This document shows, piece by piece, positions 5,619 through 42,454 of a stretch of DNA of 46,004 nucleotides. A program made the translations under genes and the position numbers. How positions within the stretch are numbered: position 1 is the stretch's first letter; the number at the start of each line of letters is the position of its first letter. The notes under the pieces are model-generated. The model saw only the letters and a program-made list of their open reading frames with translations, was not told the DNA's origin and did no database searches. Source of the DNA: an uncultured Bacteroidota bacterium (GTDB lineage Bacteria; Bacteroidota; Bacteroidia; Chitinophagales; Saprospiraceae); NCBI GenBank assembly GCA_903933805.1, contig CAIZLM010000198.1, positions 1 to 46,004 on the forward strand, read 5' to 3'.

Positions 5619-5695
5619 GTGCTGGTTATGTGCTACGCCGTCTGGCCCAAAAAGGACCATTTTTTTGTCACTGACGCGACCACCCAACCAGTTAC
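5619..5695 (+). mobile_element. MITE-like palindrome, copy A (short, degenerate)
   Basis: A 77-bp copy in the gap of about 316 bp between gmhB and gldN. The left end has drifted (GTGCTGGTTATGTG) while the right end CAACCAGTTAC is intact. It is flanked by CATGTTTG and AATGTTTG, a 7-of-8 match that looks like an aged target-site duplication. Nothing else is seen in this gap. Confidence 0.75.
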
Positions 5696-5781
5696 AATGT
5701 TTGTTTGGTACTTCTGCGGTTGCTGTGCACGGCGCACGCGGTGAACACCTGTATTTTTCACCTATCTAACTTTCTACTGAC

Positions 5782-6639
5782 ATGACAAACCTATTGTCTG
5801 TGCGGGCAGTCCGAGTTATGGCCTGTCTTGCTGGGGGCTTATTTTTGAATACCCTAGTTTTGGCACAAGAAACCGAAACGGCTTCAATGAGCCCACTTGA
5901 TGATATCACAGAACGAACAGTGGTGGCCAATCACCACATATTGCCTTACCAATCCATTCGAGAGTCCGATATATTGTGGGAAAAGCGCATTTGGAGGCTC
6001 GTGGACGTTCGTGAAAAAATGAATCAATCTTTTACGGCGCCGGAATCTCCCTTGTTTCAAATAATTTTTGAAGCTGCGCTTGCAGGAGCACTACCCGTTT
6101 ATTCCACGGAAAATGACCACTTTACCAAGCGACTCACGGTTACGGACATTCAACGCCAATTGTTTAAAACCGACACGATACTCACAATCGATGTGGTAAC
6201 GGGAGATGACAAAGTGCAGGTAATCCAAAACGAAGTGAGTTGGGAGGATGTAAAAAGATTCCGCATAAAAGAATCCTGGTATTTTGACGCTAAAACAGCA
6301 ACCCTTCAACACCGAATTCTTGGCATTGCGCCCTTGCTCGAAGTTCGCGATGAAAATGGTGATTTCAGGCTAGAGATGCCCCTGTTTTGGGTTCACTATC
6401 CCTCTTCTCGGGCGTTGTTGGCGCAGCACAAGGCCGTTACGCACAACGACAACTGGGCGAACACCACCACATGGGAAGATATTTTTGAAATGCGCTATTT
6501 CGCTTCCACCATCGTCAAAGAAAACAACGTTCAAGATCTCCGGTTACAAGATGTGTATTCGGGTCTTGATTTGGTGTTGAATGCCGAAAAAATTGAAGCG
6601 GAACTTTTTGACCGAGACCACGACGTTTGGAGTTTGTAG
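5782..6639 (+). CDS. gldN: gliding motility / type IX secretion protein GldN
   Basis: A 285-residue exported protein: a hydrophobic signal of about 28 residues ends near VLAQ. The body has the GldN hallmarks: LPYQSIRESDILWEKRIWR near the start, LFKTDTILTIDVVTGD in the middle, the WYFD/HRILGIAP/PLFWVHYP blocks and the C-terminal FDRDHDVWSL. GldN forms periplasmic rings with GldK under the outer membrane in the type IX secretion system. Unusually it stands alone: no gldK, gldL or gldM lies next to it, so this could be a second copy or a dispersed arrangement. Confidence 0.85.
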   Translation: MTNLLSVRAVRVMACLAGGLFLNTLVLAQETETASMSPLDDITERTVVANHHILPYQSIRESDILWEKRIWRLVDVREKMNQSFTAPESPLFQIIFEAALAGALPVYSTENDHFTKRLTVTDIQRQLFKTDTILTIDVVTGDDKVQVIQNEVSWEDVKRFRIKESWYFDAKTATLQHRILGIAPLLEVRDENGDFRLEMPLFWVHYPSSRALLAQHKAVTHNDNWANTTTWEDIFEMRYFASTIVKENNVQDLRLQDVYSGLDLVLNAEKIEAELFDRDHDVWSL

Positions 6640-6657
6640 CGTTGATTAGTTTGTTGT

Positions 6658-6729
6658 GTAACTGGTTAAGTGGTCGCGTCTGAGACAAAAATGTGGCCAT
6701 TTTTTAGCCGCGATCACCAGCGTATTTAC
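6658..6729 (-). mobile_element. MITE-like palindrome, copy B (short, degenerate right end)
   Basis: About 72 bp, beginning 18 bases after the gldN stop. The left end GTAACTGGTTAAGTGGTCGC and the central AAAAATGTGGCCATTTTTT are clear; the right end is reduced to GTATTTAC. No target duplication is visible. Confidence 0.65.
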
Positions 6730-6746
6730 CATTCTTTTTTTAAAAC

Positions 6747-6784
6747 GCACGGGGATATTCCAAACTGTTGGAATGTCCCCGTGC
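6747..6784. terminator. strong hairpin between convergent gldN and bacilliredoxin genes
   Basis: A 17-bp stem (GCACGGGGATATTCCAA with one wobble) around the loop ACTG. On the minus strand it is followed by a T-rich run (GTTTTAAAA), fitting termination of the bacilliredoxin transcript; it can also stop gldN transcription. Its apex resembles that of the hairpin at 25707-25749. Confidence 0.75.
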
Positions 6785-6800
6785 AACTTATAAGCAAGAA

Positions 6801-6878
6801 GTAACTGGTTAGCGTGGTCGCATCTGAGACAAAAAAGAGGCCATTTTTTGCCAGAAAGCGTGCCACCTAACCAGTTAG
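6801..6878 (-). mobile_element. MITE-like palindrome, copy C (short)
   Basis: A 78-bp copy with left end GTAACTGGTTAGCGTGG and right end CCACCTAACCAGTTAG, ending 19 bases from the bacilliredoxin stop. Flanks do not show a clear duplication. Confidence 0.75.
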
Positions 6879-6897
6879 AAAGAAAAAATAGAAAAAA

Positions 6898-7314
6898 CTA
6901 TTCGCAGTACATATCGTAAGCAGCGCGCAGGTTGTCAGCGATGATTTGCGCAGAACGGCCCTCAATGTGTCGGCGTTCTAAAATGTGAACGACCTGTCCG
7001 TCTTTGAACAAGGCAATGCTCGGTGATGATGGAGGGTAAGGAGCCAAAAATTCGCGAACTTTTGCCGTTGCTTCAGCATCTACCCCAGCAAAAACCGTAA
7101 AAAGTTTAGAAGGTTTTTTTTCGTTTTGGAGTGAAAGTTTTGCGCCTGGACGGGCCATAGCAGCCGCACAGCCGCAAACACTGTTCACAACAACAAGGGT
7201 TGTTCCTTCGTGATTATGGAAGAGTTGCTCCACCGCATCACCGTTTGAAAGCGATTCAAAACCAAAATCTGTTAGATCTTGGGCCATCGGAGCTGTTAGT
7301 GCTATCGGATACAT
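6898..7314 (-). CDS. BrxA/BrxB family bacilliredoxin
   Basis: A 138-residue protein of the YphP/YqiW (BrxA/BrxB) family, thioredoxin-like proteins that remove bacillithiol from oxidised cytoplasmic proteins. The CGC active site is in VVNSVCGCAAA (Cys47 and Cys49), and the C-terminal part has the family's PSSPSIALFKDG and RRHIEGR segments. Full family length. Many Bacteroidota carry this family, which is consistent with bacillithiol use, but no biosynthetic genes are in the window. Confidence 0.9.
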   Translation of the reverse strand: MYPIALTAPMAQDLTDFGFESLSNGDAVEQLFHNHEGTTLVVVNSVCGCAAAMARPGAKLSLQNEKKPSKLFTVFAGVDAEATAKVREFLAPYPPSSPSIALFKDGQVVHILERRHIEGRSAQIIADNLRAAYDMYCE

Positions 7315-7461
7315 AGTTATGTAAAGGTGAGTAAATTGTGAAAAATGATTGAACCAAGAACTTAAACAGCAAAAATGGGCTGATGTTTATTCTATTGGAA
7401 CAAAAAATTGTGAATGATGTATATTTTGAAATTTTTATGCTGCAAACCTTGATCATTAAAC

Positions 7462-7497
7462 AAGAAAAAGCCGCAGCACACATTTGCGCCGCAGCTT
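7462..7497 (-). terminator. intrinsic terminator of the 7.5 kb mini-gene
   Basis: On the minus strand a 13-bp stem (7497-7485 pairing with 7480-7468, loop AATG) is followed by CTTTTTC. Several pairs are G-U, so the hairpin is stable only as minus-strand RNA, which sets the direction. It starts inside the stop codon of the 26-codon frame at 7496-7576. Confidence 0.72.
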
Positions 7498-7576
7498 ATT
7501 TCCCTTGTATAATCTCATGAAAGATTTGTAACGTCATGTTGTCAATGTTATTTCCCCGTCGTCGTTCAATAATCAT
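7496..7576 (-). CDS. possible 26-residue mini-protein or small RNA gene
   Basis: Between a near-consensus -7 box (CACCTTTG, 7596-7589) and a strong minus-strand terminator (7497-7462) lies a frame of 26 codons, ATG at 7576 to TAA at 7496, encoding a basic-then-amphipathic peptide beginning MIIERRRGN and ending EIIQGK. The stop codon touches the terminator stem. The predicted transcript of about 120 nt has a leader of under 10 nt. The architecture is what I see; that it is a gene, and whether the product is the peptide or a small RNA, is inference. Confidence 0.4.
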   Translation of the reverse strand: MIIERRRGNNIDNMTLQIFHEIIQGK

Positions 7577-7588
7577 TCATTGACAATA

Positions 7589-7596
7589 CAAAGGTG
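7589..7596 (-). promoter_or_regulatory. candidate -7 box of the mini-gene
   Basis: Minus-strand CACCTTTG, one mismatch from TAnnTTTG, 12 bases before the ATG at 7576. Confidence 0.4.
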
Positions 7597-7820
7597 CGGC
7601 AATGTTGTTTGGTTTGAAAGGACAGAGAACAGCCTTTCGTCGCCCGGTTTAGACGTTAAAATTTTCATTGAAAATATCGTTAAACAGTTGATTTTGTTTG
7701 TTTTATGAAAATACATAAACAAAAAAACGCATCAATTATCCTGTTTATTTTGCTTCGTTACGCGTAAAAAGAACCATGATTTGGCCAATTATACCTACAA
7801 AAAGACTTTTAATAATCAAT
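7597..7820. other. AT-rich intergenic stretch without a supported gene
   Basis: Apart from copy D beginning at 7821 nothing convincing is present. A plus-strand 20-codon frame (7705-7767, MKIHKQKN then a hydrophobic tail) could be a tiny peptide or the relic of a signal peptide, but has no promoter or family support. Confidence 0.4.
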
Positions 7821-7983
7821 GTAACTGGTTAGCGTGGTCGCATCTGAGATAAAAAAGTGGCTATTTTTTGTCAGACGAAGTAGATTTTTGCAGGCCCCAG
7901 CAGCGCTACGGTCAAAAAAATCTGCGAAGTATGGCGGAAAATGGGCCTTTTTTATCCAGACAGCGTGCCACCGAACCAGTTAC
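7821..7983 (-). mobile_element. MITE-like palindrome, copy D (long, perfect 8-bp target duplication)
   Basis: A 163-bp full-length copy. It begins GTAACTGGTTAGCGTGGTCG, has the central AGCAGCGCTACGG region and ends CCGAACCAGTTAC. The eight bases on each side, TAATCAAT at 7813-7820 and at 7984-7991, are identical: the clearest target-site duplication in the window. Confidence 0.9.
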
Positions 7984-7991
7984 TAATCAAT

Positions 7992-8046
7992 GTAACTACT
8001 TAGGTGTCTGCATCTGATGCCTTTGTTGCGTCACCTAACCAGTTAC
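7992..8046 (+). mobile_element. MITE-like palindrome, copy E (minimal, 55 bp)
   Basis: Directly after the right duplication of copy D. It keeps only the ends (GTAACTACTTAGGTG ... CACCTAACCAGTTAC) around about 25 bp, the smallest complete palindrome here. It ends 6 bases before the stop codon of the minus-strand peroxidase gene. Confidence 0.65.
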
Positions 8047-8052
8047 TCAAAA

Positions 8053-9405
8053 TCAATTACACCCCATCTCAATTCTTGAAAGGGCATCGTTGTTGGGGAA
8101 GCAATTGCCGGACATGGTCACGGTAGGAGCGTAGCGCTGTAAGTTTGGATCAAACAGGCCATTTTCTAAAAATTCGACCAAGTCATCTATTTCGCTGTTG
8201 CTCAGGCCCAAAGGATGGAAGAATGCAGAAATTTGACTGGCAGGCACATCTGTATTTTCAGGAATGCCATTGTTGAAATATTCAACTACTGCTCGCAGGG
8301 AGTTTTTGCTGGCCCCATGAAAATAAAAACCAACATTTTTCAGGTTGTACAATTGGGGCACTTTGAACTTGTGCATTTCACTGGGAACCCCGGTAAATCC
8401 GCCTCGCCCAAGATTTCGCTTGTCGGAGGGGCCTGTGCGGAAAACATCGTGGCCGTTCTGATAAAGATTTTTCACACCGACGGAGAAAAATTGATGTGGG
8501 GAACTGTTCAGGGATGGGCTATTGTGGCAGTTGACACATCCTGCTTTGTCGAAGAAAAGTACGGCACCTCTTTTTTGTTGGTCTGTCAAGGCATTTGTTT
8601 CGCCTTGTACAAACCGTTGAAAAGGTGCATCGTTTGTCAATATGGTACGGAAGTAGGCTGCTATGGCAAACCCACCAGTTTGACGGGTGTAGCGCTCGCC
8701 CACGGGGATTTCGGGGAATGCAGCATCGAACATCGGTGTATAGCCAAGAGAATCAGTCACATCTTTATTGATTACCTGGCGGTGTACAATCAGCGCTCGG
8801 GTATTGTTGGCCTCTAAACCCTCCAAACCTTTGAAGTTAATTTCGACCAAAGTATCCTGATGCCAAGCAGACTCTGTCCCGACATTGGCATGGAATGAGC
8901 CAAAAGTACCGGCCCACAAAGCATTGGTAACATAGGTTAGGTTGATGGTTGGGAGGGGTCTTGCACCTTGTGCGTCCACTTCGTCGCCTGTATAAAGAGG
9001 GTTTTTGCTGCGGGTTTCACCGCTTTGTCCGAAGCCGAGCGCGCCATCGGCAATTCCCTGAAATCGACCGGCGGTAAAACCACGGGAAGGGATGTGGCAA
9101 GTGCTACAGGAATAGGCGATTTTTGAAATGGGGTATTGAGGTTCCAAGCCAAGACCGGTTTCAAAAAACAGCATTCTTCCCAATTCAACTTTGGCGGCCG
9201 TAACAGGATTTTTGGCATCCTGATTCGGGAGGGAAGCGAAGTCGGTACTTTCCGGCATAGCGTACCCGGTGTAGGATCCAGTTTTGGAGTGGCCGTTCAG
9301 CAAGTCCAACAATTGTTGGTCTAAACTTGCATCGGCATCATGCACACATCCAAGCAGGTAGCTCGTGGTTGCGATGATAAAAAACAAGGCATAAGACTTT
9401 TTCAT
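8053..9405 (-). CDS. MauG/CcpA-like di-haem cytochrome c peroxidase, lipoprotein
   Basis: A 450-residue periplasmic-side protein with a lipoprotein signal ending LLGC (Cys20). Two haem c motifs: CSTCH (100-104) and CVNCH (290-294), spaced as in the bacterial di-haem peroxidase/MauG family. These enzymes reduce H2O2 or carry out haem-based oxidations using electrons from small cytochromes. The HKFKVPQLYNLKNVGFYFHG segment near the C-terminus is also typical. A perfect minus-strand TACCTTTG lies about 115 bp upstream. It has its own promoter and is downstream of rnpA on the same strand. Confidence 0.9.
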   Translation of the reverse strand: MKKSYALFFIIATTSYLLGCVHDADASLDQQLLDLLNGHSKTGSYTGYAMPESTDFASLPNQDAKNPVTAAKVELGRMLFFETGLGLEPQYPISKIAYSCSTCHIPSRGFTAGRFQGIADGALGFGQSGETRSKNPLYTGDEVDAQGARPLPTINLTYVTNALWAGTFGSFHANVGTESAWHQDTLVEINFKGLEGLEANNTRALIVHRQVINKDVTDSLGYTPMFDAAFPEIPVGERYTRQTGGFAIAAYFRTILTNDAPFQRFVQGETNALTDQQKRGAVLFFDKAGCVNCHNSPSLNSSPHQFFSVGVKNLYQNGHDVFRTGPSDKRNLGRGGFTGVPSEMHKFKVPQLYNLKNVGFYFHGASKNSLRAVVEYFNNGIPENTDVPASQISAFFHPLGLSNSEIDDLVEFLENGLFDPNLQRYAPTVTMSGNCFPNNDALSRIEMGCN

Positions 9406-9519
9406 TTTCTAAAGCAATTTCAAAATGTGACCAATAACAGAAGTTACCCCCACGAGGTGGAAGCGCTTAACAGAGGTCCTTGTGGAAATTGGGAAATATG
9501 AGGCTCAGATACCTTTCCA

Positions 9520-9527
9520 CAAAGGTA
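9520..9527 (-). promoter_or_regulatory. -7 promoter box of the di-haem peroxidase gene
   Basis: Minus-strand TACCTTTG, an exact TAnnTTTG match, about 115 bases upstream of the start at 9405, leaving a leader of about 110 nt. Confidence 0.55.
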
Positions 9528-9587
9528 GGTGGTATTCTGATGAAAAACGTGAAGCGGTCGGCTTTAAGCGTATTTTAATGCGGGTAA

Positions 9588-9995
9588 TCATGCTTTATGT
9601 TCGCCCAGCGTCTCGAAGGGGAATTTTCGAATCAACTTTTTCATCCCGGCGTCAATTTCTGTATAAGGCAGTTGTTCCTTTGCGATGTAGGTGATCATCA
9701 AGGAAACGTGTTTTTGGTGTGGCTGGAGCTGGTCGTAAAATGCCTGTTTGTGTAATCTGTAGGCTTCTCGCATTTGACGTTTGAGTCGATTGCGCTGTAC
9801 AGCTGTTTTAAAAATTCTTTTTGAGGCGGAGACGGCCATCGTTGCGCAACCATGTTCGCCCGCATGGGAGACAGCCCAAACCACCCGCAGTGGATAAGCT
9901 ACAAAAGATCTGCCAGTTTTAAAAAGCGTAGCAATGACCTTACGGCTTTTCAACCGTTCGTTGCGATCTAGGGTGTTGGGTGCTGGAGTGTCCAC
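9588..9995 (-). CDS. rnpA: ribonuclease P protein component
   Basis: A 135-residue basic protein, the protein subunit of RNase P that assists the RNA in trimming the 5' leader of pre-tRNAs. It shows the family's RNR motif: VQRNRLKRQMREAYR with RNRLKR at about 68-73, preceded by AVSASKRIFKTA. It lies downstream of rpmH on the same strand, the usual order, but a terminator-like hairpin and a MITE copy separate the two. Confidence 0.93.
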   Translation of the reverse strand: MDTPAPNTLDRNERLKSRKVIATLFKTGRSFVAYPLRVVWAVSHAGEHGCATMAVSASKRIFKTAVQRNRLKRQMREAYRLHKQAFYDQLQPHQKHVSLMITYIAKEQLPYTEIDAGMKKLIRKFPFETLGEHKA

Positions 9996-10029
9996 GATGG
10001 ACGAAATAAGAATCAGTCAATTAAAAAAA

Positions 10030-10108
10030 GTAACTGGTTAGGTGGCACGCTGTCTGGCCCAAAAGTGGCCATTTTTTTGTCTCAAACGCGACCACGCTAA
10101 CCAGTTAC
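10030..10108 (+). mobile_element. MITE-like palindrome, copy F (short, perfect 8-bp target duplication)
   Basis: A 79-bp copy between rpmH and rnpA, with ends GTAACTGGTTAGGTGGCACG and CACGCTAACCAGTTAC. It is flanked on both sides by TAAAAAAA (10022-10029 and 10109-10116). The duplication is perfect, though low-complexity. Confidence 0.85.
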
Positions 10109-10112
10109 TAAA

Positions 10113-10157
10113 AAAACAAGAAAAACCCGTCCTGTGGCAAAGCACTACAGGACGGGT
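10113..10157 (-). terminator. intrinsic terminator downstream of rpmH
   Basis: Perfect 11-bp stem ACCCGTCCTGT (10125-10135) with 10147-10157; on the minus strand it is followed by TTTTTCTTG. It would stop transcription from rpmH before rnpA. Confidence 0.75.
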
Positions 10158-10213
10158 ATGGTAAAAACAATGGTGAAAACACCCAAACGTAGGCTATTCA
10201 CACACGGTTAATA

Positions 10214-10369
10214 TTACTTGAGGCGACGCTCGTCTGAAACAGTGAGTTTCCAGCGACCTTGTTTCCGGCGGCGTGCGATGACTTTACGGCCATTTTTAGA
10301 GGCCATGCGCTCCCGAAAACCAAGTTTGTTTTTACGGCTGCGGCGTGATGGTTGAAATGTGCGTTTCAT
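10214..10369 (-). CDS. rpmH: 50S ribosomal protein L34
   Basis: A 51-residue, strongly basic protein starting [20 protein letters not shown], the unmistakable L34 sequence, and continuing [20 protein letters not shown]34 is a small protein of the large ribosomal subunit. The Bacteroidota form has a slightly longer C-terminal tail ([12 protein letters not shown]). It has an exact TACCTTTG box 45 bp upstream and a terminator downstream. rpmH-rnpA is often near oriC. Confidence 0.98.
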
Positions 10370-10414
10370 CGCTTACTCGACTTGTATAATGAATTATGTA
10401 AAAATTTGGGAGCG

Positions 10415-10477: not shown

Positions 10478-10639
10478 GTAACAGGCTAGATGGTCGAGTT
10501 TGAGTCAAAAAAGCGGCCGTTTTTTGTCATACGAAGCGGATTTTTGGAGGCCGTAGCAGCGCTACGGTCAAAAAAATATGCGAAGTATGGCGGGAAATGG
10601 GCCTTTTTGGGCCAGACAGCGTGCCACAAAACCAGTTTT
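10478..10639 (-). mobile_element. MITE-like palindrome, copy G (long)
   Basis: A 162-bp copy with drifted ends (GTAACAGGCTAG at left, AACCAGTTTT at right) and an intact centre CCGTAGCAGCGCTACGG. It is flanked by AAAAGACT and ATAAGACT, a 7-of-8 match. It fills much of the 420-bp gap between rpmH and dsbD. Confidence 0.82.
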
Positions 10640-10761
10640 ATAAGACTTTAAAGATTGTTTAGCGCCTATTTTTCAACACAAAAAATAAAAATGTCCACAA
10701 TAATGCCGGTTAAAATTCTTTTAAACCGCCGGATATTGTGAATGTACCGAATCTTTACGTG

Positions 10762-10769: not shown

Positions 10770-10790
10770 CAGTCCAATTCAATATAAAAA

Positions 10791-12996: not shown

Positions 12997-13157
12997 GCAA
13001 CTGGTAAGGCCGTTGCGTCTGGCCACAAAAGGCCCATTTTCTGCCATACTTCGCAGATTTTTTTGACCGTAGCGCTGCTACGGCCTACAAAAATCCGCTT
13101 CGTCTAGCAAAAAATGGTCTCTTTTTTGTCTCAGACGCGACCACGCTAACCATTTAC
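12997..13157 (+). mobile_element. MITE-like palindrome, copy H (long, tandem with I)
   Basis: A 161-bp copy starting one base after the dsbD stop codon. Its left 50 bp are diverged (GCAACTGGTAAGGCCGTTGC), the rest is almost identical to copy I, including shared private variants (TTCTGCC, ATGGTCTC, the end ACCATTTAC). This points to duplication of one copy from the other. Confidence 0.88.
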
Positions 13158-13164: not shown

Positions 13165-13327
13165 GTAACTGGTTAGGTGGCACGCTGTCTGGCCCAAAAA
13201 GGCCCATTTTCTGCCATACTTCGCAGATTTTTTTGACCGTAGCGCTGCTACGGCCTACAAAAATCCGCTTCGTCTGGCAAAAAATGGTCTCTTTTTTGTC
13301 TCAGACGCGACCACGCTAACCATTTAC
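13165..13327 (+). mobile_element. MITE-like palindrome, copy I (long, tandem with H)
   Basis: A 163-bp copy separated from H by TAATACA, and followed by TAATACA again. The repeated heptamer is either a target duplication or part of the unit that was tandemly duplicated. Confidence 0.9.
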
Positions 13328-18792: not shown

Positions 18793-18955
18793 GTAACTGG
18801 TTAGGAGGCTCGCTTTCTGGCCCAAAAAGTGGCTATTTTCCGCCGTTGTCCGCAGATTTTTTTGACCGTAGTGCTGCTACGGGTTGCAAAAATCGGCTTC
18901 GACTGGCAATTAATGGCCACTTTTTTGTCCCAGACGCGACCACCGAATCGGTTTA
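18793..18955 (+). mobile_element. MITE-like palindrome, copy J (long, diverged)
   Basis: A 163-bp copy with an intact left end GTAACTGGTTAGGAGG and a decayed right end (CGGTTTA). Flanks AATAATTT and GATAATTT match at 7 of 8. Its many private substitutions mark it as older than the neighbouring copy K. Confidence 0.85.
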
Positions 18956-18968: not shown

Positions 18969-19130
18969 GTAACTGGTTAGGTGGCACGCTGTCTGGCCCA
19001 AAAAGGCCCATTTTCCGCCATACTTCGCAAATTTTTTTGACCGTAGCAGCGCTACGGTCAAAAAAATCCGCTTCGTCTGGCAAAAAATGGTCACTTTTTT
19101 GTCTCAGACGCGACCACGCTAACCAGTTAC
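18969..19130 (+). mobile_element. MITE-like palindrome, copy K (long)
   Basis: A 162-bp near-consensus copy, 13 bp after J and 17 bp before the cytochrome c ATG. It keeps CCGTAGCAGCGCTACGG in the centre. Flanks TTTAATTT and TTTAAATG match only partly. Confidence 0.9.
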
Positions 19131-19484: not shown

Positions 19485-19619
19485 GTAGTTGGTTAGGAGG
19501 CACGCTGTCTGGCCCAAAAAGGCCCATTTTCCGCCATACAAAGGCGTTTTTTTGGCCGTATCGCTGCTACGCCCTGCAAAAAACCGCTTTGTCTCCGACG
19601 CAACCACCCAACCAGTTAT
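19485..19619 (+). mobile_element. MITE-like palindrome, copy L (135 bp, intermediate)
   Basis: Between the cytochrome c gene and lipA, 14 bp after the former's stop. It has left end GTAGTTGGTTAGGAGG, a shortened middle and right end CAACCAGTTAT. It lies 32 bp before the lipA ATG and so must contain or displace lipA upstream signals. Confidence 0.85.
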
Positions 19620-21431: not shown

Positions 21432-21511
21432 GTAACTGGTTAGCTTGGTCGCGTCTGAGACAAAAAAGTGGCTACTTTTTGGGCCAGACAGCGTGCTATC
21501 TAACCAGTTAC
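21432..21511 (-). mobile_element. MITE-like palindrome, copy M (short)
   Basis: An 80-bp copy with ends GTAACTGGTTAGCTTGG and GCTATCTAACCAGTTAC. Flanks TTTTTTAA and ATTTTTAA match at 7 of 8. It lies in the divergent gap upstream of the OmpH/Skp gene. Confidence 0.85.
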
Positions 21512-22146: not shown

Positions 22147-22224
22147 GTAACTGGTTTGTCGGCACGCTACCGGGCCCAAAGTGGCCACTTTTTTGTCTCA
22201 GGTTCGACCACCCAAACCAGGTAC
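22147..22224 (+). mobile_element. MITE-like palindrome, copy N (short)
   Basis: A 78-bp copy starting 3 bases after the OmpH/Skp stop codon, with ends GTAACTGGTTTGTCGG and CCAAACCAGGTAC. Its centre CAAAGTGGCCACTTTTTTG reads as a small stem with a T-run on the gene's strand and could act as a terminator. No clear target duplication. Confidence 0.8.
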
Positions 22225-25618: not shown

Positions 25619-25693
25619 GCAACTGGTTGGGTGGCACGCGGTCTGTCAAAAAATGTTTTTTTTGACGCATACGCGACCACTCTAACCAGTTAC
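25619..25693 (+). mobile_element. MITE-like palindrome, copy O (short)
   Basis: A 75-bp copy starting 8 bases after the stop of the DUF2723 gene, with ends GCAACTGGTTGGGTGG and CACTCTAACCAGTTAC. The centre is rearranged (AAAAAATGTTTTTTTTGACG). No target duplication. Confidence 0.75.
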
Positions 25694-25706: not shown

Positions 25707-25749
25707 ACAAACGGGCGCGTTTCCAACTGTTGGAAACGCGCCCGTTTGT
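25707..25749. terminator. very strong bidirectional hairpin
   Basis: Perfect 20-bp stem (25707-25726 with 25730-25749) and a 3-base loop CTG, GC-rich in the middle. It lies between the convergent DUF2723 and haloperoxidase genes. The apex TTCCAACTGTTGGAA resembles that of the hairpin at 6747-6784. Confidence 0.8.
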
Positions 25750-25762: not shown

Positions 25763-25840
25763 GTAACTGGTTAGGGGGCACGCTGTCTGGCGGAAAATGG
25801 CCACTTTTTTGTCTCAGACGCGACCACGCTAACCAGTTAC
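25763..25840 (+). mobile_element. MITE-like palindrome, copy P (short)
   Basis: A 78-bp copy with ends GTAACTGGTTAGGGGG and CACGCTAACCAGTTAC, ending 3 bases before the stop of the minus-strand haloperoxidase gene. The left arm carries an internal shortening (TCTGGCGGAAAATGG). Confidence 0.85.
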
Positions 25841-27343: not shown

Positions 27344-27505
27344 GTAACTGGTTAGCATGGTCGCGTCTGGCCCAAAAAGGCCCATTTTCCGCCATACTTC
27401 GCAGATTTTTTTGACCGTAGCGCTGCTACGGCCTACAAAAATCCGCTTCGTCTGGCAAAAAATGGCCGCTTTTTTGTCTCAGACGCGACCACACTAACCA
27501 GTTAC
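27344..27505 (+). mobile_element. MITE-like palindrome, copy Q (long, hybrid ends, perfect 8-bp duplication)
   Basis: A 162-bp copy flanked on both sides by TAAAAATT (27336-27343, 27506-27513). Its left 25 bp are of the right-end type (TAGCATGGTCGCGTCT) while the following arm is a normal left arm, so both termini are near-perfect mirror images. The last base of the element is also the last base of the dcd stop codon complement. Confidence 0.92.
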
Positions 27506-30949: not shown

Positions 30950-31112
30950 GTAACTGGTTAGGTGGCACGCTGTCTGGCCCAAAAAGGCCCATTTTCCGCC
31001 ATACTTCGCAGATTTTTTTGACCGTAGCGCTGCTACGGCCTACAAAAATCCGCTTCGTCTGGCAAAAAATGGCCTCTTTTTTGTCTCAGACGCGACCACG
31101 CGAACCAGTTAC
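30950..31112 (+). mobile_element. MITE-like palindrome, copy T (long, tandem with U)
   Basis: A 163-bp near-consensus copy. It shares with U the private right end CACGCGAACCAGTTAC. Left flank CGAAAAAA; it is joined to U by the octamer TATGTTTG. Confidence 0.92.
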
Positions 31113-31120: not shown

Positions 31121-31282
31121 GTAACTGGTTAGGTGGCACGCTGTCTGGCCCAACTAGGTCCATTTTCCGCCATACTTCGCGGATTTTTTTGACCGTAGCG
31201 CTGCTACGGCCAAAAAAATCCGCTTCGTCTGACAAAAAACGGCCACTTTTTTGTCTCAGACGCTACCACGCGAACCAGTTAC
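31121..31282 (+). mobile_element. MITE-like palindrome, copy U (long, tandem with T)
   Basis: A 162-bp copy 8 bp after T, with the more symmetric centre CGCTGCTACGGCCAAAAAAATC. It ends 28 bp before the ATG of the next gene. T and U probably arose by duplication of one insertion. Confidence 0.92.
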
Positions 31283-31310: not shown

Positions 31311-31838
31311 ATGAACAAACAGAAACCTCGGCTTTTCGCTTTTATACTCACCCTTTGTTTTTTTGCGCTTGTTTGGATGTACGTGCGGGAGTTTCCCCTT
31401 TTTTCCAATACCATAGGAGTCGGGTGGTTGGTATTGGAATCTATGTCGGTTGGATTGGTGGCTGCTTTGGTTGGTATATGGCAGTTTCGCAAACGCTTTA
31501 TGCCTTGGGACAGACATTTGGCGGATATCGCCTTTATCGTGGTAACCACTGTTTTTTTTGCGCCCTTGTTTGGCAGTTGGTTCAACCGCGGGCTTGGTCT
31601 GCCAGCATCACAGACTTTTGAATTTGTTTCGGAGACGCCATATTTTGCCGCTGGATACGGGGTTTTAAAAGGAGAAAAGTTGACGCCAACGGGTTATCAT
31701 CTGGTGGTGCTGGAAAATGGTGTGCGCCGATCATTTACCTATAAAACACAGGCCTATTTTCCCATCACAAAACCGGGAGAATCAATTATATTGCCAGTAT
31801 GCAAGGGGCTGTTGGGCGCCAAGGTAATGTTGTTGTAA
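31311..31838 (+). CDS. membrane protein of unknown function
   Basis: A 175-residue protein with three hydrophobic segments (about 8-26, 37-57, 70-90) followed by a soluble C-terminal part of about 80 residues rich in beta-type sequence. No family recognised. The stop codon TAA is formed by the terminal GTAAC of an adjacent MITE end at 31835, so the original C-terminus may have been different. Confidence 0.7.
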   Translation: MNKQKPRLFAFILTLCFFALVWMYVREFPLFSNTIGVGWLVLESMSVGLVAALVGIWQFRKRFMPWDRHLADIAFIVVTTVFFAPLFGSWFNRGLGLPASQTFEFVSETPYFAAGYGVLKGEKLTPTGYHLVVLENGVRRSFTYKTQAYFPITKPGESIILPVCKGLLGAKVMLL

Positions 31839-31866
31839 CTGGTTAGGTAGCACCCTGTCTGGCCCA
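31835..31866 (+). repeat. MITE fragment (left end only) supplying a stop codon
   Basis: GTAACTGGTTAGGTAGCACC and CTGTCTGGCCCA, i.e. about 32 bp of the left arm, ending abruptly before the tdk 3' end. Its bases 2-4 are the stop codon of the preceding membrane-protein gene. Confidence 0.75.
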
Positions 31867-36794: not shown

Positions 36795-38018
36795 ATGATG
36801 AACCAATTTTTCACGCATTGGCGGAGTTCCTACCAAGGAATTCCCAAAGAGATTTGGTTTTTATCCCTGATCACGCTTGTCAACAAGTGTGGCTCCATGA
36901 TCATTGTATTCATCACGCTTTATCTGACCCAGGAGCTACACTATCACATTCGGGAGGCTGGCTACACGATGATGTTTTTTGGATTGGGTGGGCTGGTTGG
37001 TGCATATATTGGGGGGCGTTTGACCGACAGGTTGGGCAGTTTTCCGGTTCAATTTTGGAGTCTAATGGTCAACGGTGTGGTGTTGATGTTGATGTTACAC
37101 ATTCGGGATTTTGGGATGATGTGTGGCGCTGTTTTTTTTCTTTCCTTGATTTCTGAATCATTCCGGCCGGCCAATTCTGTCGCCATCGCAAACCATTGTA
37201 CCGCGGAAACACGCACGCGGTCTATATCGCTGTATAGAATGGCTGCCAACCTAGGATGGGCTGTTGCGCCGGCGATCGGCGGAGTTTTGGTGGCTTTTGG
37301 GTGGTCTTGGTTGTTTTGGGTAGATGGGTTGACTTGTATATTAGCGGCCATTTTTCTTTATTGGCTGTTACCACCGAAGCCATTTCACCGACATAAGCCC
37401 TCAGAGCAGGAGTTCGACGAGCCGATTGAAAGGCGAAAATCCCCGTACCGCGATCGTAAATTTGTCTGGTTTTCGATATTAACCGTCTTGAATGCCATGG
37501 TATTCATGCAATTGTTGTGGATCATTCCTGTTTTCTGGAAAACGCAATTTGGATGGAACGAAACCACAGTGGGTTTGATGAGCGCACTGAATGGCGTATT
37601 TGTTTTTCTGATAGAGATGCCGTTGGTACACCAATTGGAAGGCAAACGCAATCCGATGGATTACGTTCGGGTAGGTTTATTGTTCTACGCAGCCTCGTAC
37701 TTGTGTTTTCTACTGCCCCTAGGTTATACGGCATTGGGCTTGCTGTTCATCATTGCCATATCACTGGGGGAGATATTTGTGATGCCGTTTAGCAGCAATT
37801 TTGTTTTTGGGCGCGCCCTAGGCGCCTATCAGGGACAATACATGGCACTTTATGGAATTTCCTGGGGTGTTGCCAACACCTTGGCGCCACTGTATGGTAC
37901 GCAAGTAGTAGCTACTTATGGGTACAATACGTTGTGGGTGCTGTTGGCCATACAGGCTTGTGTTGTCTGGGTTGGTTTTTGGTTCCTTGACCGACTTTTT
38001 CCTGAAGAAATGGCGTGA
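36795..38018 (+). CDS. MFS transporter
   Basis: A 407-residue protein with twelve predicted hydrophobic segments and the cytoplasmic loop GGRLTDRLGS after helix 2, the MFS signature. The halves are linked by a charged loop (about 196-220). The family is drug/metabolite exporters of the YfcJ/MdtH kind, but the substrate cannot be inferred. A second ATG at 36798 is an alternative start. Confidence 0.88.
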   Translation: MMNQFFTHWRSSYQGIPKEIWFLSLITLVNKCGSMIIVFITLYLTQELHYHIREAGYTMMFFGLGGLVGAYIGGRLTDRLGSFPVQFWSLMVNGVVLMLMLHIRDFGMMCGAVFFLSLISESFRPANSVAIANHCTAETRTRSISLYRMAANLGWAVAPAIGGVLVAFGWSWLFWVDGLTCILAAIFLYWLLPPKPFHRHKPSEQEFDEPIERRKSPYRDRKFVWFSILTVLNAMVFMQLLWIIPVFWKTQFGWNETTVGLMSALNGVFVFLIEMPLVHQLEGKRNPMDYVRVGLLFYAASYLCFLLPLGYTALGLLFIIAISLGEIFVMPFSSNFVFGRALGAYQGQYMALYGISWGVANTLAPLYGTQVVATYGYNTLWVLLAIQACVVWVGFWFLDRLFPEEMA

Positions 38019-38032
38019 TGCCCTGCCATACA

Positions 38033-38090
38033 GAGGAGCGTGCTATTGCGGAAAATAAGTGCATCTATTTTCTGCAATAGCACGCTCCTC
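38033..38090. terminator. long bidirectional hairpin between convergent genes
   Basis: A perfect 17-bp outer stem (38033-38049 with 38074-38090) continued, after one wobble, by a 7-bp inner stem (GAAAATA/TATTTTC) and an 8-base loop. It lies between the MFS gene and the minus-strand barrel gene; there is no long T-run. Confidence 0.7.
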
Positions 38091-38103
38091 CAACCGTGGT
38101 TGC

Positions 38104-38703
38104 TCAATAATCCCTATCGGCCTTTAGGTTCAGAAACATTTTGAAACCCAAGGAACCGGAGATTATCTTAGCCTTGATGTGGTAATTCGCATCGAAGACA
38201 AATTCTACATTTTTAAACATATCTCGGATATAGAAATAGCCCAATTCTGCGCCCACGGTATAGTCGAGCCCGAATCCAGTGTCATCTAACACAACGCCGG
38301 GCTCCGTTTTGCGGGTATCAAAGTAATAGCGGATACCCGCTTTGCCCATGGCGGTGAAAGCAGCGCGCTTTGTTTTGGCGCATTGGTCACCGTTGGAGCG
38401 GTATTTGCCAGCGCCTGCTTCCAAGAGGGCGTAAGGAGTTGCCTGAAAGGATTTTTCGAAATCATCTGTTTTAGGATCAGCGGTCATATTGGCCCCAATA
38501 CCCAACCTGGCAACGCTCCAATGTGTTCCGACATTCAGGGCGAATCCCAAGCCGAGACCTGCCCGTTTGGTTGCTTGCTCCAAATTGGGAGATGTGACAT
38601 AAATACTGGGCACATCCAAAAATAGACGTGACTTGTTTTGCGCTATGGCCACGTAAAAAAATGACACGACAAACGCTGGTATTAGTAGATATTTTTTCAT
38701 CAC
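38104..38703 (-). CDS. probable outer-membrane beta-barrel protein
   Basis: A 199-residue exported protein: signal peptide to about residue 21 (VAIAQ), then alternating hydrophobic strands with glycine/aromatic pattern (GLGLGFALNVG, YALLEAGAGKY, GKAGIRYYFD, GAELGYFYI, ending GSLGFKMFLNL) as in small outer-membrane barrels. No named family recognised; the function is unknown. Confidence 0.7.
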   Translation of the reverse strand: MMKKYLLIPAFVVSFFYVAIAQNKSRLFLDVPSIYVTSPNLEQATKRAGLGLGFALNVGTHWSVARLGIGANMTADPKTDDFEKSFQATPYALLEAGAGKYRSNGDQCAKTKRAAFTAMGKAGIRYYFDTRKTEPGVVLDDTGFGLDYTVGAELGYFYIRDMFKNVEFVFDANYHIKAKIISGSLGFKMFLNLKADRDY

Positions 38704-38934
38704 ATTGATTGTTTACAACCACTTGGTTGACAAGCTTTGTGGCCAATAAGCCCACTTTGTTGTCTCTGAGGTGTTGTGGTTGGTTTCATATAAAAATGGG
38801 TCACAAGATACGCTTGCAGCCAGCATATCAGCGCAGTTTCGCCGACAACTTCATTTCAGCGACACAAATAAATACGTCTGGCAAAACCTATCGCCGAATT
38901 TTGGGTGTAACGTATTATTTTCGCGCTGCAAACA

Positions 38935-40611
38935 ATGATCATACCCATGGCAAAAAAAACATCCACCGCACAGCGCACCAAAGTTGCTGGTAATGCGAGC
39001 AACAACATACCTACAGAAAAATGGCTTCCTTGGGCGCTTGCCGCCCTCTCGTTGTTCCTTTTTTCCACAGGATTTAAGAACGAAATGTTGGCCATTGACG
39101 ACCATACAGCAACGATTGACAATCCTGCGGTCACCAATTTTGATATTTTTTCCAATTTTAACCTTGGCATGTACGCACCGCTTACTTGGTTGGGCTATGC
39201 CATTGCCTACCTGTTGGGGGAAGATAGCAGCTTTTGGTACCACGTTTTTAGCGCCTTGGTACATGCGGCGAATGTCGTGTTGGTGTTTCAGTTGTTTCGC
39301 CAACTGCATACGAGTTTAACGGTGGCAGGTTTTATCGCTTTTTTCTTTGCCATACACCCTTTACAAGTAGAGCCAGTGGCTTGGATTTCAGGCTTTAGCA
39401 CGCCACTTTATGCCATGTTTTACTTGCTTGCATTGCGCTTTTATGTTCGACACTCGTTGCAGGAGCAATTGGAAAAAAATTACTGGATGGCATTGGGCAT
39501 GTTCTTTCTCGCTTGTCTGTCAAAGTCAGCAGCTGTGGCGTTACCACTGACCTTGTTGGTGGTGGATTTATGGCTCAAGCGCGGTCAGAACAGGCGTATC
39601 TGGATCGAGAAAATTCCCTTTTTTGCGCTGTCCCTTGCTTTTGGAGCACTTACACTGGTTTCTCGCCAGCATGCGCCGCCTTTGGATCAGCCTGCAGATT
39701 TTAGTTTGCTGGATCGCGCGCTCATGGTGTGCCACACCATCTTGTTTTACTGGAAGATGATTGTCTTACCAACAGGGTTGAGTATTTGGTATCCTTTTGA
39801 AAAAACCAATGGCGCTTGGGGCTGGGCATATTATGCATCCCCCCTCCTGCTTGCGGCTATTTTGTACATTGCTTGGCGCATGCGGGCGTCAATGCCTGTG
39901 CTTTGGCTAGGCTTGTTGTTCTTTTTAACCAACGTAGTGCTGTCGTTGCCATGGGCCACGTTTGGTTCCTTTGAGTTGCGTTCCGACCGCTACAATTACG
40001 TGGCTTGTTTGGGGATATTCGCCATTATTACGGCACTTCCCACCTATTTTTCTCAAAAAAGACCCAATTTGGTTGGGCCCATGTGGGGGGTACTGGTCCT
40101 GTCAGGTGTAATATGGCTGTTCACCTCCGGTGCAAGGATCATGGAGTGGAAAGACACCATTACCCTCATAGACAGCGCTATAGCAACCAACGGGGACAAT
40201 TTTGGGAAGGCGTACCTATCGCGGGGTATTATTCTTGCTGATCAGGGAAAAGGTGATCCTGCACTCCAGGATTTCAACAAAGCGATTAATAAAAATGCAC
40301 TTTTGGTGGATGTTTACAAGTACCGTGGCAACATCATGGGGCTGAGGAAAAACTATGAACAGTCAGTATTTGATCTCACCAAATACATCGAGTACTTCCC
40401 GGAGGCATCCCCGGAAATATACAATCGTGGACTTTCATACGTGAATTTGGGCAAAGACACGGAAGCACTGGCAGATTTTAATCGATGCCTGGAAATAGAC
40501 AGTACTTTTACCCGGGCCTATCGCGCCCGTGGAAATACCTACCTGAAATTGGGGGAAACAGCAAAAGGTGATGCGGACTTACAGAAATATGATCGACTGA
40601 CAAAAAAGTGA
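38935..40611 (+). CDS. TMTC/PMT-like membrane glycosyltransferase with TPR domain
   Basis: A 558-residue protein. After a short basic start it has about ten membrane segments, with the first extracytoplasmic loop carrying IDDHTATIDNPAV (acidic residues as in GT-C enzymes) and the segments HPLQVEPVAWISG and CLSKSAAVALP. The C-terminal part (about 410-558) is a row of about four TPR units (DNFGKAYLSRGIILADQGKG, AYRARGNTYLKLG). This layout matches the TMTC-type O-mannosyltransferases and the bacterial proteins related to them. Second GT-C-like protein in the window. An ATG four codons downstream is also possible. Confidence 0.8.
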   Translation: MIIPMAKKTSTAQRTKVAGNASNNIPTEKWLPWALAALSLFLFSTGFKNEMLAIDDHTATIDNPAVTNFDIFSNFNLGMYAPLTWLGYAIAYLLGEDSSFWYHVFSALVHAANVVLVFQLFRQLHTSLTVAGFIAFFFAIHPLQVEPVAWISGFSTPLYAMFYLLALRFYVRHSLQEQLEKNYWMALGMFFLACLSKSAAVALPLTLLVVDLWLKRGQNRRIWIEKIPFFALSLAFGALTLVSRQHAPPLDQPADFSLLDRALMVCHTILFYWKMIVLPTGLSIWYPFEKTNGAWGWAYYASPLLLAAILYIAWRMRASMPVLWLGLLFFLTNVVLSLPWATFGSFELRSDRYNYVACLGIFAIITALPTYFSQKRPNLVGPMWGVLVLSGVIWLFTSGARIMEWKDTITLIDSAIATNGDNFGKAYLSRGIILADQGKGDPALQDFNKAINKNALLVDVYKYRGNIMGLRKNYEQSVFDLTKYIEYFPEASPEIYNRGLSYVNLGKDTEALADFNRCLEIDSTFTRAYRARGNTYLKLGETAKGDADLQKYDRLTKK

Positions 40612-40627
40612 TTTCCAGTGTTGTTGG

Positions 40628-40661
40628 CAAAAAAAATCAGCCCTGCATTGCGCAGGGCTGA
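40628..40661 (-). terminator. intrinsic terminator of the HtrA gene
   Basis: Perfect 10-bp stem TCAGCCCTGC / GCAGGGCTGA, followed on the minus strand by eight Ts. It lies about 65 bp after the HtrA stop. Confidence 0.85.
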
Positions 40662-40726
40662 CACATCAAAACAAAACGAAAAACCAACTTTTTTTTTGTT
40701 TAGTAAGACAAATGAGGCAATAGTGA

Positions 40727-41878
40727 TTAATTCCCTTCCACCTTACTTCTTAAACGAACGGGAATTTCCTGCGTTTTATTGTTTCGAACAACGGAGAGCA
40801 CCAAGGTTTCACCCACTTGTGATCGGCCAATTTGCTCTAAAAGTTCCGCTGTGGATGTTACAAGTTTGCCATTTGCCTTGGTAATGATGTCGTTTTCCAA
40901 CACACCTGATTTGGAAGCGGACCCTTCTGCATCCAAGTCAACAATAACAGCACCCTGAACAAATTCCAAATTTAGCTCTTTGGCGACATTAGAATCCATT
41001 GTCGCAACATTTACACCGAGGTAAGCTCTTCTGTATTCGCCGTATTTCATCAGGTCATCGGCGATACGTTTCACCAGGTTCACCGGAATGGCAAAGGAAT
41101 AACCTGCGAACACCCCTGTTGGCGTGGCAATTGCAGAGTTGATACCAATCAGGCGGCCATTAACATCTACCAATGCACCACCTGAATTTCCGGGGTTGAC
41201 CGCAGCATCCGTCTGAATGAATGATTCAATGGCTTTACCGCCTTTAATAATGTCGATGTCGCGACCTTTGGCACTTATGATCCCTGCTGTAACCGTGGAG
41301 GTTAAGTCAAAGGGGTTGCCGACAGCCAATGCCCATTCACCTACCCGCACATCATCTGAGTTGCCCAGTTCGATGGCTGGCAGGTCACCGGCGTCTATCT
41401 TAATAACAGCCATATCGGTGTTGGGATCGCGTCCTACCAACCGAGCTTTAAACTCCCGGTTGTCGTGCAGTGTGACTTCATATTCATCGGCAAATTCCAC
41501 CACGTGGTTATTGGTTAGAATATAGCCATCAGCGGTGTAAATCACGCCGGAACCCGATCCGGAGCGCGGTTGTTGCTGGTAGCCGTAGCCTTGTCCGAAA
41601 AAGTATTCAAAGGGGTCGGAGTAGCGTTGATTTCGTTGTCGTTGGGTGGCAGATTCCCTACTTTCAGAGGCTTTGATGTGCACCACGGCCGCCATGGATT
41701 TTTCTGCGGCTTTGGTAAAATCAAACGGAACGGGTGCGGAACCATAATTTACTTGCCGCGTATAAGTTTGAGTGGGCGGTGGCGCTGTCTCGGCTTTGTT
41801 TTTCAATATGTTTGACGCAGCAAACGTAACCAAGCCACCCGCGGCGCCGGCAAGCAATGTTGACCAAATTCTGTGCAT
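40727..41878 (-). CDS. HtrA/Deg-family serine protease
   Basis: A 383-residue periplasmic or membrane-anchored protease. An N-terminal hydrophobic segment (about 5-23) serves as signal or anchor, then a trypsin-like domain with the catalytic triad His125 (TNNHVV), Asp155 (NTDMAV) and Ser232 (GNSGGA), and one PDZ domain (about 280-375, with YLGVNVATMD). The length with a single PDZ fits DegS/HhoB-like members; DegP has two. It degrades misfolded envelope proteins or acts in signalling. Confidence 0.92.
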   Translation of the reverse strand: MHRIWSTLLAGAAGGLVTFAASNILKNKAETAPPPTQTYTRQVNYGSAPVPFDFTKAAEKSMAAVVHIKASESRESATQRQRNQRYSDPFEYFFGQGYGYQQQPRSGSGSGVIYTADGYILTNNHVVEFADEYEVTLHDNREFKARLVGRDPNTDMAVIKIDAGDLPAIELGNSDDVRVGEWALAVGNPFDLTSTVTAGIISAKGRDIDIIKGGKAIESFIQTDAAVNPGNSGGALVDVNGRLIGINSAIATPTGVFAGYSFAIPVNLVKRIADDLMKYGEYRRAYLGVNVATMDSNVAKELNLEFVQGAVIVDLDAEGSASKSGVLENDIITKANGKLVTSTAELLEQIGRSQVGETLVLSVVRNNKTQEIPVRLRSKVEGN

Positions 41879-41978
41879 AGCGTAAATAAGTTAAATGTTG
41901 TTGAATGGGTAAACTACAAAGAGGTGCAATGACAGGCCGAAAAAAATCCGTTTTTCGCCGACCAGCGCAAATTCTTTT

Positions 41979-42129
41979 GTAACTGGTTAGCGTGGTCGCG
42001 CCTGAGACAAAAAAGAGGCCATTTTTTGCCAGACGAAGCGGATTTTTGTAGGCCGTAGCAGCGCTACGGTCAAAAAAATCTGCGAAGTATGGCGGAAAAT
42101 GGGCCTCTTTGGGCCCACTAATCAGTTAT
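41979..42129 (-). mobile_element. MITE-like palindrome, copy W (long, right end shortened)
   Basis: A 151-bp copy with left end GTAACTGGTTAGCGTGG, an intact centre CCGTAGCAGCGCTACGG and a right arm that lost about 12 bp before CTAATCAGTTAT. Flanks match 6 of 8 but are low-complexity. It occupies the 670-bp gap between HtrA and the HD-domain gene. Confidence 0.85.
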
Positions 42130-42173
42130 AATTTTTTTTAAACCTAGGCTACAAAATTATGCTTCTTTGAGCG

Positions 42174-42215
42174 AATAATGGCCGCTTTTTTGTCGCAATT
42201 AAGACGACCTAGGTA
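42174..42215 (+). repeat. degenerate MITE fragment
   Basis: ATAATGGCCGCTTTTTTGTC followed by a distorted AAGACGACCTAGGTAG resembles the right arm of a long copy. Between this and copy Y (42216-42377) nothing else is evident. Confidence 0.35.
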
Positions 42216-42377
42216 GTCAAGGTGGATGAATAATGGCAATCAAAACACAACATTTAAACGCAAAAAATGCCTTGTTGCTGTTGAAATACCTTACTTTAAC
42301 GCCGCGTTAACCAATTGCCATTTTGGATCAATAATCTCCAAACACAATGGGTGAAAATGGGCCTAATTTTGTAAAAG

Positions 42378-42454
42378 GTAACTGGTTAGGTGGTCGCGGC
42401 TGAGACAAAAAATGGACCTTTTTGGGCCAGACAGCTTGGTACCTAAGCAGTTAT
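42378..42454 (-). mobile_element. MITE-like palindrome, copy Y (short)
   Basis: A 77-bp copy with ends GTAACTGGTTAGGTGGTCGC and ACCTAAGCAGTTAT. Flanks TGTAAAAG and TGTAAAAT match at 7 of 8. Confidence 0.85.

What the first reader, a model, noticed from the sequence alone, without database searches (positions are those of the whole stretch)
5619..42454. A dense, intergenic family of palindromic MITE-like elements (GTAACTGGTTAG ... CTAACCAGTTAC)
Twenty-three complete or near-complete copies and four fragments are scattered between 5.6 and 42.5 kb, together about 2.6 kb, and all lie outside genes. Both orientations occur. Long copies (about 162 bp) consist of two arms of about 80 bp that are imperfect mirror images around CCGTAGC/GCTACGG; short copies (about 78 bp) lack the inner half of both arms. 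No copy has coding capacity. Such density in a housekeeping region implies a recently or continuously active non-autonomous element. I do not know a described family with these ends.
Basis: partly seen in the sequence, partly recalled or inferred. Interest (0 to 1): 0.85.

Follow-up and report, generated by a model that had tools for sequence, protein, structure and literature searches.

The report
Hairpin transposons with exchangeable end caps
Several hundred to about a thousand short hairpin-shaped jumping sequences sit between the genes of this bacterium, and relatives carry the same hairpin at almost the same length but with end sequences that belong to different transposases, which suggests a DNA parasite that can change the enzyme that moves it.

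Summary
The window has 21 complete or near-complete copies (about 163 or 78 bp) and five fragments, intergenic. They are mobile: 35 of 147 full copies in 963 kb of the same genome have an exact 8-bp flanking repeat, against 0.11 by permutation; no other length comes close. The genome holds an estimated 780-960 copies.

GTAACTGGTTAG ends plus 8-bp duplications fit the ISBst12 group of IS66. The genome has one such single-gene element (L033, ends GTAACTATCCAG), but no autonomous element with exactly the window's ends was found.

One cap equals L033's ends; two resemble IS5-family elements with ATT or TAA/TTA duplications. The core is shared (5-12 sd above a pairing-preserving shuffle); the outermost 18 bp or so are not.

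Best reading: a non-autonomous hairpin element whose caps, and so whose transposase, were replaced during evolution. The palindrome may help, since arm-to-arm copying shows in about 6 of 78 copies. The swap itself is inferred. Three conserved gene junctions in two relatives lack the element.

The parts
5619..5695 (+). short copy
6658..6709 (-). partial short copy
6801..6878 (-). short copy
7821..7983 (-). long copy, TAATCAAT on both sides (8-bp target duplication)
7992..8046 (.). 55-bp remnant with both ends, beside the previous copy
10030..10108 (+). short copy, TAAAAAAA on both sides
10478..10640 (-). long copy
12997..13157 (+). long copy
13165..13327 (+). long copy in tandem with the previous one, TAATACA (7 bp) on both sides
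18793..18953 (+). long copy
18969..19130 (+). long copy; inner part of the right arm reads as a copy of the left arm
19485..19619 (+). long copy, internally shortened (135 bp)
21432..21511 (-). short copy
22147..22224 (+). short copy
25619..25693 (+). short copy
25763..25840 (+). short copy
27344..27505 (+). long copy, TAAAAATT on both sides; the gene junction lacks it in L034 and L131
28141..28218 (+). short copy; the gene junction lacks it in L034 and L131
28740..28818 (-). short copy; the gene junction lacks it in L034 and L131
29855..29866 (.). orphan right end
30950..31112 (+). long copy used as genome query
31121..31282 (+). long copy in tandem with the previous one
31835..31866 (+). left-end fragment
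41979..42129 (-). long copy with one end shortened
42147..42210 (+). inner fragment of a long copy
42378..42454 (-). short copy

Best explanation
These are copies of a non-autonomous DNA transposon. Shown: about 162 bp, no gene, terminal repeats GTAACTGGTTAG, 8-bp target duplications, hundreds of copies almost all between genes, divergence from under 2% to over 30%. Inferred: an ISBst12-group IS66 transposase, supplied in trans, recognises the terminal cap of about 12-18 bp and moves the element; once inserted, copies decay nearly neutrally; the 78-bp form arises by deletion between the two AAAAA-GGCC-TTTTT boxes (in place, or once with later spread: not resolved). Shown for relatives: the same hairpin core of about 122 bp, at nearly the same total length, sits inside different terminal caps, one equal to and two resembling the ends of autonomous IS66-like and IS5-family elements. 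Inferred from that: the hairpin is the lasting unit and its caps have been replaced, so it has changed transposase. A plausible route is capture of a foreign end on one arm, then copying onto the other arm by template switching within the palindrome; arm-to-arm copying near the tip is seen in some copies.
For: 8-bp duplications in 35 of 147 full copies, permuted mean 0.11, maximum 1 in 200 permutations. Own IS66-like element L033: PF03050 match, one 453-aa ORF, 1,441 bp, GTAACTATCCAGCC at both ends. ISDge4 of the ISBst12 group, seen to transpose, has one end GTAACTGCTCAGCA (10 of 14 with ours, my count), a 449-aa gene and an 8-bp repeat (PMC12898284, passages). The G012 element L043 has L033's ends, 14 of 14 on both sides. 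IS5-family elements L252 (880 bp, AGACTTCTTGCG ends, ATT on both sides) and L262, L263, L265 (871 bp, GAGTATGTTC ends, TAA or TTA on both sides) resemble two other caps in 11-12 and 10-11 of 14 positions at best. In 60 hairpins against four insertion sequences the only matches with E under 0.01 are the caps of L043 on L033, so the cores do not come from these elements. Core similarity to the window copy at 18969 exceeds pairing-preserving shuffles by z 5.2-11.6 in 13 of 13 elements scored, no shuffle of 400 reaching it. 55 of 60 elements are 161-163 bp. Well-supported branches of the core tree force at least two changes of the AGAC cap. Arm homogenisation: 9 of 78 long copies with a recognisable tip, about 6 clear.
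Against: No autonomous element with exactly GTAACTGGTTAG ends was found: three IS66 matches in the whole own genome, none seen with these ends; in 963 kb (23% of the genome) six pairs of orphan ends 0.7-4 kb apart frame no transposase that I recognise. 0 of 10 related genomes searched have PF03050, though G003, G014 and G012 among them carry GTAA-ended elements. L033 itself shows no target duplication, and its ends match the window's in only 8 of 14 (my count). The 3-bp duplication of the AGAC type is weak: 8 of 20, permuted mean 3.4, maximum 9 in 1,000. No element with two different caps was seen. Caps and cores mostly go together on the tree (9 changes, least possible 8), the tree program warns of long branches, and one of the AGAC rows that split the class (G014 L103) is one of them. 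In the own genome 19 pair changes on both sides keep the pair, 15 do not, 289 are one-sided, so symmetrising copying does not dominate; four of the six clear homogenised copies could descend from one event. G014 and G040 share the window's 12-bp end with a related core, so not every relative differs.
Confidence: 0.66

Rival explanations
1. Ordinary MITE families, each derived on its own from its own insertion sequence, whose hairpins look alike only because they are A/T-run hairpins of similar length (convergence).
For: MITEs usually derive from one parent, for example MITECca01 from an IS982 element (PMC9769881, passages). Cap class and core mostly co-vary. The F, H and I type cores score lowest (z 5.2-6.0). 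Relatives also have many other, unrelated long hairpins.
Against: Pairing-preserving shuffles do not reach the observed similarity; many columns on both arms are invariant in 22 elements of three cap classes; the G003 AGAC elements L111 and L119 share CTGTCTGG at position 21 and CTCAGACGC at position 136 with the window element; no core match inside L033, L252, L262 or L031.
Confidence: 0.2
2. A host-domesticated structure such as a terminator, RNA-processing site or nucleoid site, kept for function rather than by mobility.
For: Long stable hairpins, intergenic (92 of 100 copies overlap a called ORF by at most 30 nt, against 9% of random positions), length kept over a class.
Against: Precise 8-bp duplications; little excess between convergent genes (18 of 94, with 14.6% of gap bases) and no clear orientation bias (25 against 20); mostly one-sided loss of pairing; absent at three junctions of conserved gene order in two relatives; no Rfam match at gathering scores.
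Confidence: 0.06
3. A REP/REPIN-like element moved by a Y1 (RAYT) transposase.
For: High copy number, palindromic, intergenic.
Against: 8-bp duplications at 12-bp terminal repeats; 163/78-bp size instead of 20-40-bp REP units (start of abstract of PMC3733652 in the listing). A Y1 gene was not searched for.
Confidence: 0.02

Closest known systems
ISBst12 group of the IS66 family (ISDge4; PMC12898284, passages seen)
   Same: ends of the form GTAACTGnTnAG and an 8-bp target repeat; the own-genome relative L033 has one 453-aa transposase gene
   Different: the window element has no gene, and no core match was found in L033
MITECca01 of Cardinium (PMC9769881, passages seen)
   Same: very abundant (169 copies, 3.5% of the chromosome), mostly intergenic, thought to be moved by a parental insertion sequence
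   Different: IS982-derived, about 240 bp, one parent; here the core is shared between cap classes
MITEPsy1 of Pseudomonas syringae (PMC3189936, passages seen)
   Same: 100-nt non-autonomous element with 18-nt ends like those of an insertion sequence (ISPsy2), shown to transpose
   Different: 4-nt duplication, six copies in strain 1448A
BrickBuilt of Porphyromonas gingivalis (PMC4596501, abstract and outline seen)
   Same: intergenic MITE in Bacteroidota
   Different: holds a 23-nt minisatellite; 19 copies in ATCC 33277
Enterobacterial RU-1/RU-2 repeats, 127 and 168 bp (PMC2759123, start of abstract in listing)
   Same: size, intergenic, MITE-like
   Different: other phylum; sequences not compared here

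Membership tests
MITE (non-autonomous DNA transposon) | short, no transposase gene | tested here: met
   163/78 bp; only chance-like ORFs
MITE (non-autonomous DNA transposon) | terminal inverted repeats | tested here: met
MITE (non-autonomous DNA transposon) | target-site duplication of fixed length | tested here: met
   8 bp, 35 of 147 exact
MITE (non-autonomous DNA transposon) | autonomous partner with the same ends | tested here: inconclusive
   not found for GTAACTGGTTAG; exact for the G012 element (L033), close for two IS5-like caps
IS66 family, ISBst12 group (as parent) | GTAACT-type ends | tested here: met
   ISDge4 ends from PMC12898284
IS66 family, ISBst12 group (as parent) | 8-bp duplication | tested here: met
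   8-bp repeat of ISDge4
IS66 family, ISBst12 group (as parent) | single-gene transposase in the genome that recognises the ends | tested here: inconclusive
   L033 present, its ends match in 8 of 14 (my count); recognition not testable here
REP / REPIN | 20-40-bp palindromic units | tested here: not met
   units are 78 or 163 bp
REP / REPIN | Y1 RAYT transposase | not tested
   no search made

The most novel reading that the evidence does not exclude
The hairpin, not its ends, is the persistent replicating unit: a core of about 122 bp kept at a total of 161-163 bp across a class of Bacteroidota, which has exchanged caps of about 18 bp between IS66-like, IS5-like and other transposons. The palindrome lets a cap captured on one arm be copied to the other, so the parasite can change its transposase without losing its body. 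The fixed length points to a structural requirement that is not yet known.
Probability: 0.45. Interest if true: 0.82.

Novelty: new variant of a known kind. Interest (0 to 1): 0.68.

Why it matters
Non-autonomous elements are usually seen as debris of one parent transposon that dies out with it. A conserved hairpin that outlives its transposases by changing end caps would explain how such elements persist and reach many hundreds of copies, and would give a tractable case for how mobile DNA recruits new enzymes. In the first 438-kb sample of this genome (window included) the family makes up roughly a quarter of the called intergenic DNA (12.4 of 47.0 kb).

Tried and rejected
Rfam gave no match at gathering scores. 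L031, an intact IS66 element (ends GTAAGCCTCCC, CACCGGGA on both sides), was rejected as partner because its ends differ. L032 is a decayed IS66 remnant beside two copies. A base-level empty site could not be shown, because the intergenic sequence of the nearest relatives is too diverged. Twelve loci with AGAC ends were looked at for an autonomous partner without success; L252 came from the transposase search instead. Six orphan-end pairs in the own genome frame genes that are not transposases by my recognition, one of them only a 135-aa frame. Plasmids (one G223 element and one window copy) and viral contigs (one exact 21-bp pattern) gave no match. RNAalifold on the mixed alignment kept only the six tip pairs, so the model R1 is mostly sequence. 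A helical-phase idea (57, 68, 78, 120, 141 and 162 bp differ by about 10.5-bp steps) rests on too few odd-length copies and is not claimed. Paper searches; I saw nothing in their listings that describes this family or cap exchange, but the library lacks most subscription papers.

Rows dropped and limits: one element (G_G005) was not cut out and is not counted; observed scores took the better strand (the forward one in all 13) while shuffles were scored forward only; outer matches were counted without gaps, so the 2-3 of 16 for G217 is a frame artefact. In one search, 9 of 30 loci gave no terminal repeat (for loci near contig ends the script looked in the wrong place), 6 of 26 gave none and one only an inner part, 2 of 12 gave none. 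The 60 elements were accepted only at 150-180 bp and all come through a query of 163 or 114 bp or their end pattern, so the narrow length range is partly selected. One overlong row was cut to 162 bp. One of the seven other genomes (G016, L047) does not look like an element. E-values from R1 are rough by the tool's own words.
Full report
What is in the window. The window is contig 198 of a 4.2-Mb, 336-contig assembly. The seven named relatives found for one of its genes are five Saprospiraceae assemblies, an Aureispira and a Flavobacterium. Twenty-one complete or near-complete copies and five fragments lie between 5.6 and 42.5 kb. Long copies are about 163 bp, short ones about 78 bp. The window is dense even for this genome: 5.65 copies per 10 kb, against 2.37 and 2.36 in two samples, nearly all from contigs where earlier calls had placed a copy, and 1.86 in 140 kb of contigs picked by number alone. 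That gives about 780 copies per genome from the last sample (26 copies) and about 960 from all 917 kb outside the window (210 copies). The exact tip CGTAGC-RSY-GCTACG occurs 134 times in the genome.

They moved. Of 147 full copies with clear ends, 35 have an exact 8-bp repeat directly outside the ends and 62 have at most one mismatch. Pairing left flanks with right flanks of other copies gives 0.11 (maximum 1) and 0.91 (maximum 5). Lengths 4 to 7 and 9 to 11 show nothing comparable; the next largest is 6 bp, with 7 exact against 0.65, maximum 4. The 78 full copies of the first sample range from under 2% to over 30% from the consensus, and the nearest other copy is about as far as the consensus: amplification from few sources over a long time. 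In L034 (a named Saprospiraceae assembly, five genes) and L131 (genome G001, four genes) the gene order around 25.8-30.5 kb is kept at 62-85% protein identity, yet none of the three junctions that hold an element here holds one there; the window's profiles hit none of 17 loci around the same gene in relatives. Pairing decays much as neutral sequence would: 289 one-sided pair changes, 19 two-sided ones that keep the pair and 15 that do not (long copies). Of 100 copies of over 60 bp, 92 overlap a called ORF by no more than 30 nt, against 9% of random positions; gene orientation around them roughly follows the share of gap bases. Genes were called by a simple ORF rule, so these fractions are approximate.

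Which enzyme. GTAA ends and an 8-bp duplication point to IS66. The own genome has three matches to its transposase domain. L033 is a one-gene element of 1,441 bp with GTAACTATCCAGCC at both ends. ISDge4, an ISBst12-group element that was seen to transpose, has ends GTGACTACTCAGCA and GTAACTGCTCAGCA, one 449-aa gene and an 8-bp repeat (PMC12898284, passages). Intermediate ends occur on hairpins of relatives: GTAACTATTTAG, GTAACTGTTTAG and TAACTATTCAG. No autonomous element with precisely the window's ends was found, so the partner is inferred. Ten related genomes have no such transposase, including three with GTAA-ended hairpins.

The unexpected part. A DNA search of 40 genomes matched seven others of the same genus (8 of 40 with the own genome), one of them doubtful (G016). 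In G014 the first 12 bp are the window's; in G003, G012, G008, G023 and G022 the ends differ. A model of the core (22 elements, six cap variants in three classes) then matched 29 of 42 genomes of the genus at E 1e-3, 11 of them at 1e-7, 11 of 198 of the order at 1e-4 and 4 of 395 of the phylum at 1e-5, the own genome counted each time. Where the script could locate the ends, the loci were hairpins of similar length with clean terminal repeats: 21 of 30 loci, 155-179 bp with A/T-rich flanks included; 19 of 26, 161-169 bp; 10 of 12, 156-168 bp. Caps include GTAACTGGTTAG, GTAAATACTTAG, GTAACTATCCAG, AGACTTGTTGCGG, TAAGTACCTGGAC, GAGCATGTTNGGGATTTT, AGAGGCTGTCTTGATTTT, AGAGCCTGTTTAAAT and GAAGTGGTTTAAAC. 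Some may be related to each other: the three GTAA forms, the AGAG/GAG forms, and GTAGAC with AGAC. I count nine classes on the tree, of which GTAA, AGAC, AAGT and GAG- are clearly different. G223, with 8.8 Mb in 4 contigs, fits Haliscomenobacter hydrossis DSM 1100 (8,771,651 bp, chromosome and three plasmids; PMC3156403, passages); this is an inference.

Is the core really shared? I compared each relative's inner part with the window copy at 18969, against 400 shuffles each that move mirror columns together and so keep composition and pairing. All 13 scored elements lie 5.2 to 11.6 sd above, and no shuffle reaches them. Columns invariant in 22 elements lie on both arms and at the tip. The tip has TA and AT switched on both sides in 6 of 22 elements, all of the related B and C variants, so perhaps once. 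The outer 16 bp, counted without gaps, match in 3 to 7 positions for the AAGT, GAGC, GAGG and GAGN elements and the AGAC element of G003, where about 4 is chance. In G003, the AGAC-capped L111 and L119 have CTGTCTGG at position 21 and CTCAGACGC at position 136, as the window element has.

Do the caps belong to different enzymes? The G012 element L043 has L033's ends exactly. IS5-family L252 (G020) has AGACTTCTTGCG ends and ATT on both sides, as many AGAC-capped hairpins have ATT or AAT; L262, L263 and L265 (G223) have GAGTATGTTC ends and TAA or TTA on both sides. None of the four insertion sequences tested holds the hairpin core: in 60 elements the only matches with E under 0.01 are the caps of L043 on L033. 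The duplication of the AGAC type is less sure: 3 bp in 8 of 20, permuted mean 3.4 and maximum 9, and 8 bp in none of 20.

How could both ends change? In 9 of 78 long copies with a recognisable tip both arms near the tip are of one kind; about 6 are clear, two of these with variants private to that copy, while the other four could share one origin. Such copying within a palindrome could spread a newly captured cap from one arm to the other. This last step is a proposal; no half-converted element was seen. On a tree of 60 cores, nine cap classes need nine changes, with eight the least possible, and well-supported branches force at least two for AGAC, with a long-branch warning that touches one of the rows concerned. 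Exchange, if real, is rare and mostly old.

Length. 55 of 60 elements are 161 to 163 bp whatever the cap. The search favours this range, but the part outside the 114-bp model was free to vary within 150-180 bp. I have no tested explanation.

Verdict. The element is a real, very successful MITE, most likely moved by an ISBst12-type IS66 transposase. The shared hairpin inside different caps is the finding that deserves follow-up.

Noticed in passing
L066 around 17107 and L069 around 4522 (own genome C72): A second long-hairpin repeat in this genome (about 145-170 bp, centre CAATACGGGATATTG; arms with GTCCA) with another core.
   Followed up: no
L132 (G006), L136 (G015), L138 (G014): Relatives have other long intergenic-looking hairpins, some built from simple repeats such as GTTGAAGGTTGAAGG; six scored in 12.6 kb of L132.
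   Followed up: no
window 25707-25749: A perfect 21-bp stem (ACAAACGGGCGCGTTTCCAAC and its complement around one T) between two short copies and between convergent genes; it may be a terminator.
   Followed up: no
window 18313, 18607 and 42700, partly 18485: A short repeat AGGAGGTATTGAA recurs inside two different long ORFs.
   Followed up: no
L102, L112, L114, L120, L126: Genomes with AGAC caps also hold very short versions (30-57 bp) with both ends, so caps alone may be mobile or left behind.
   Followed up: partly
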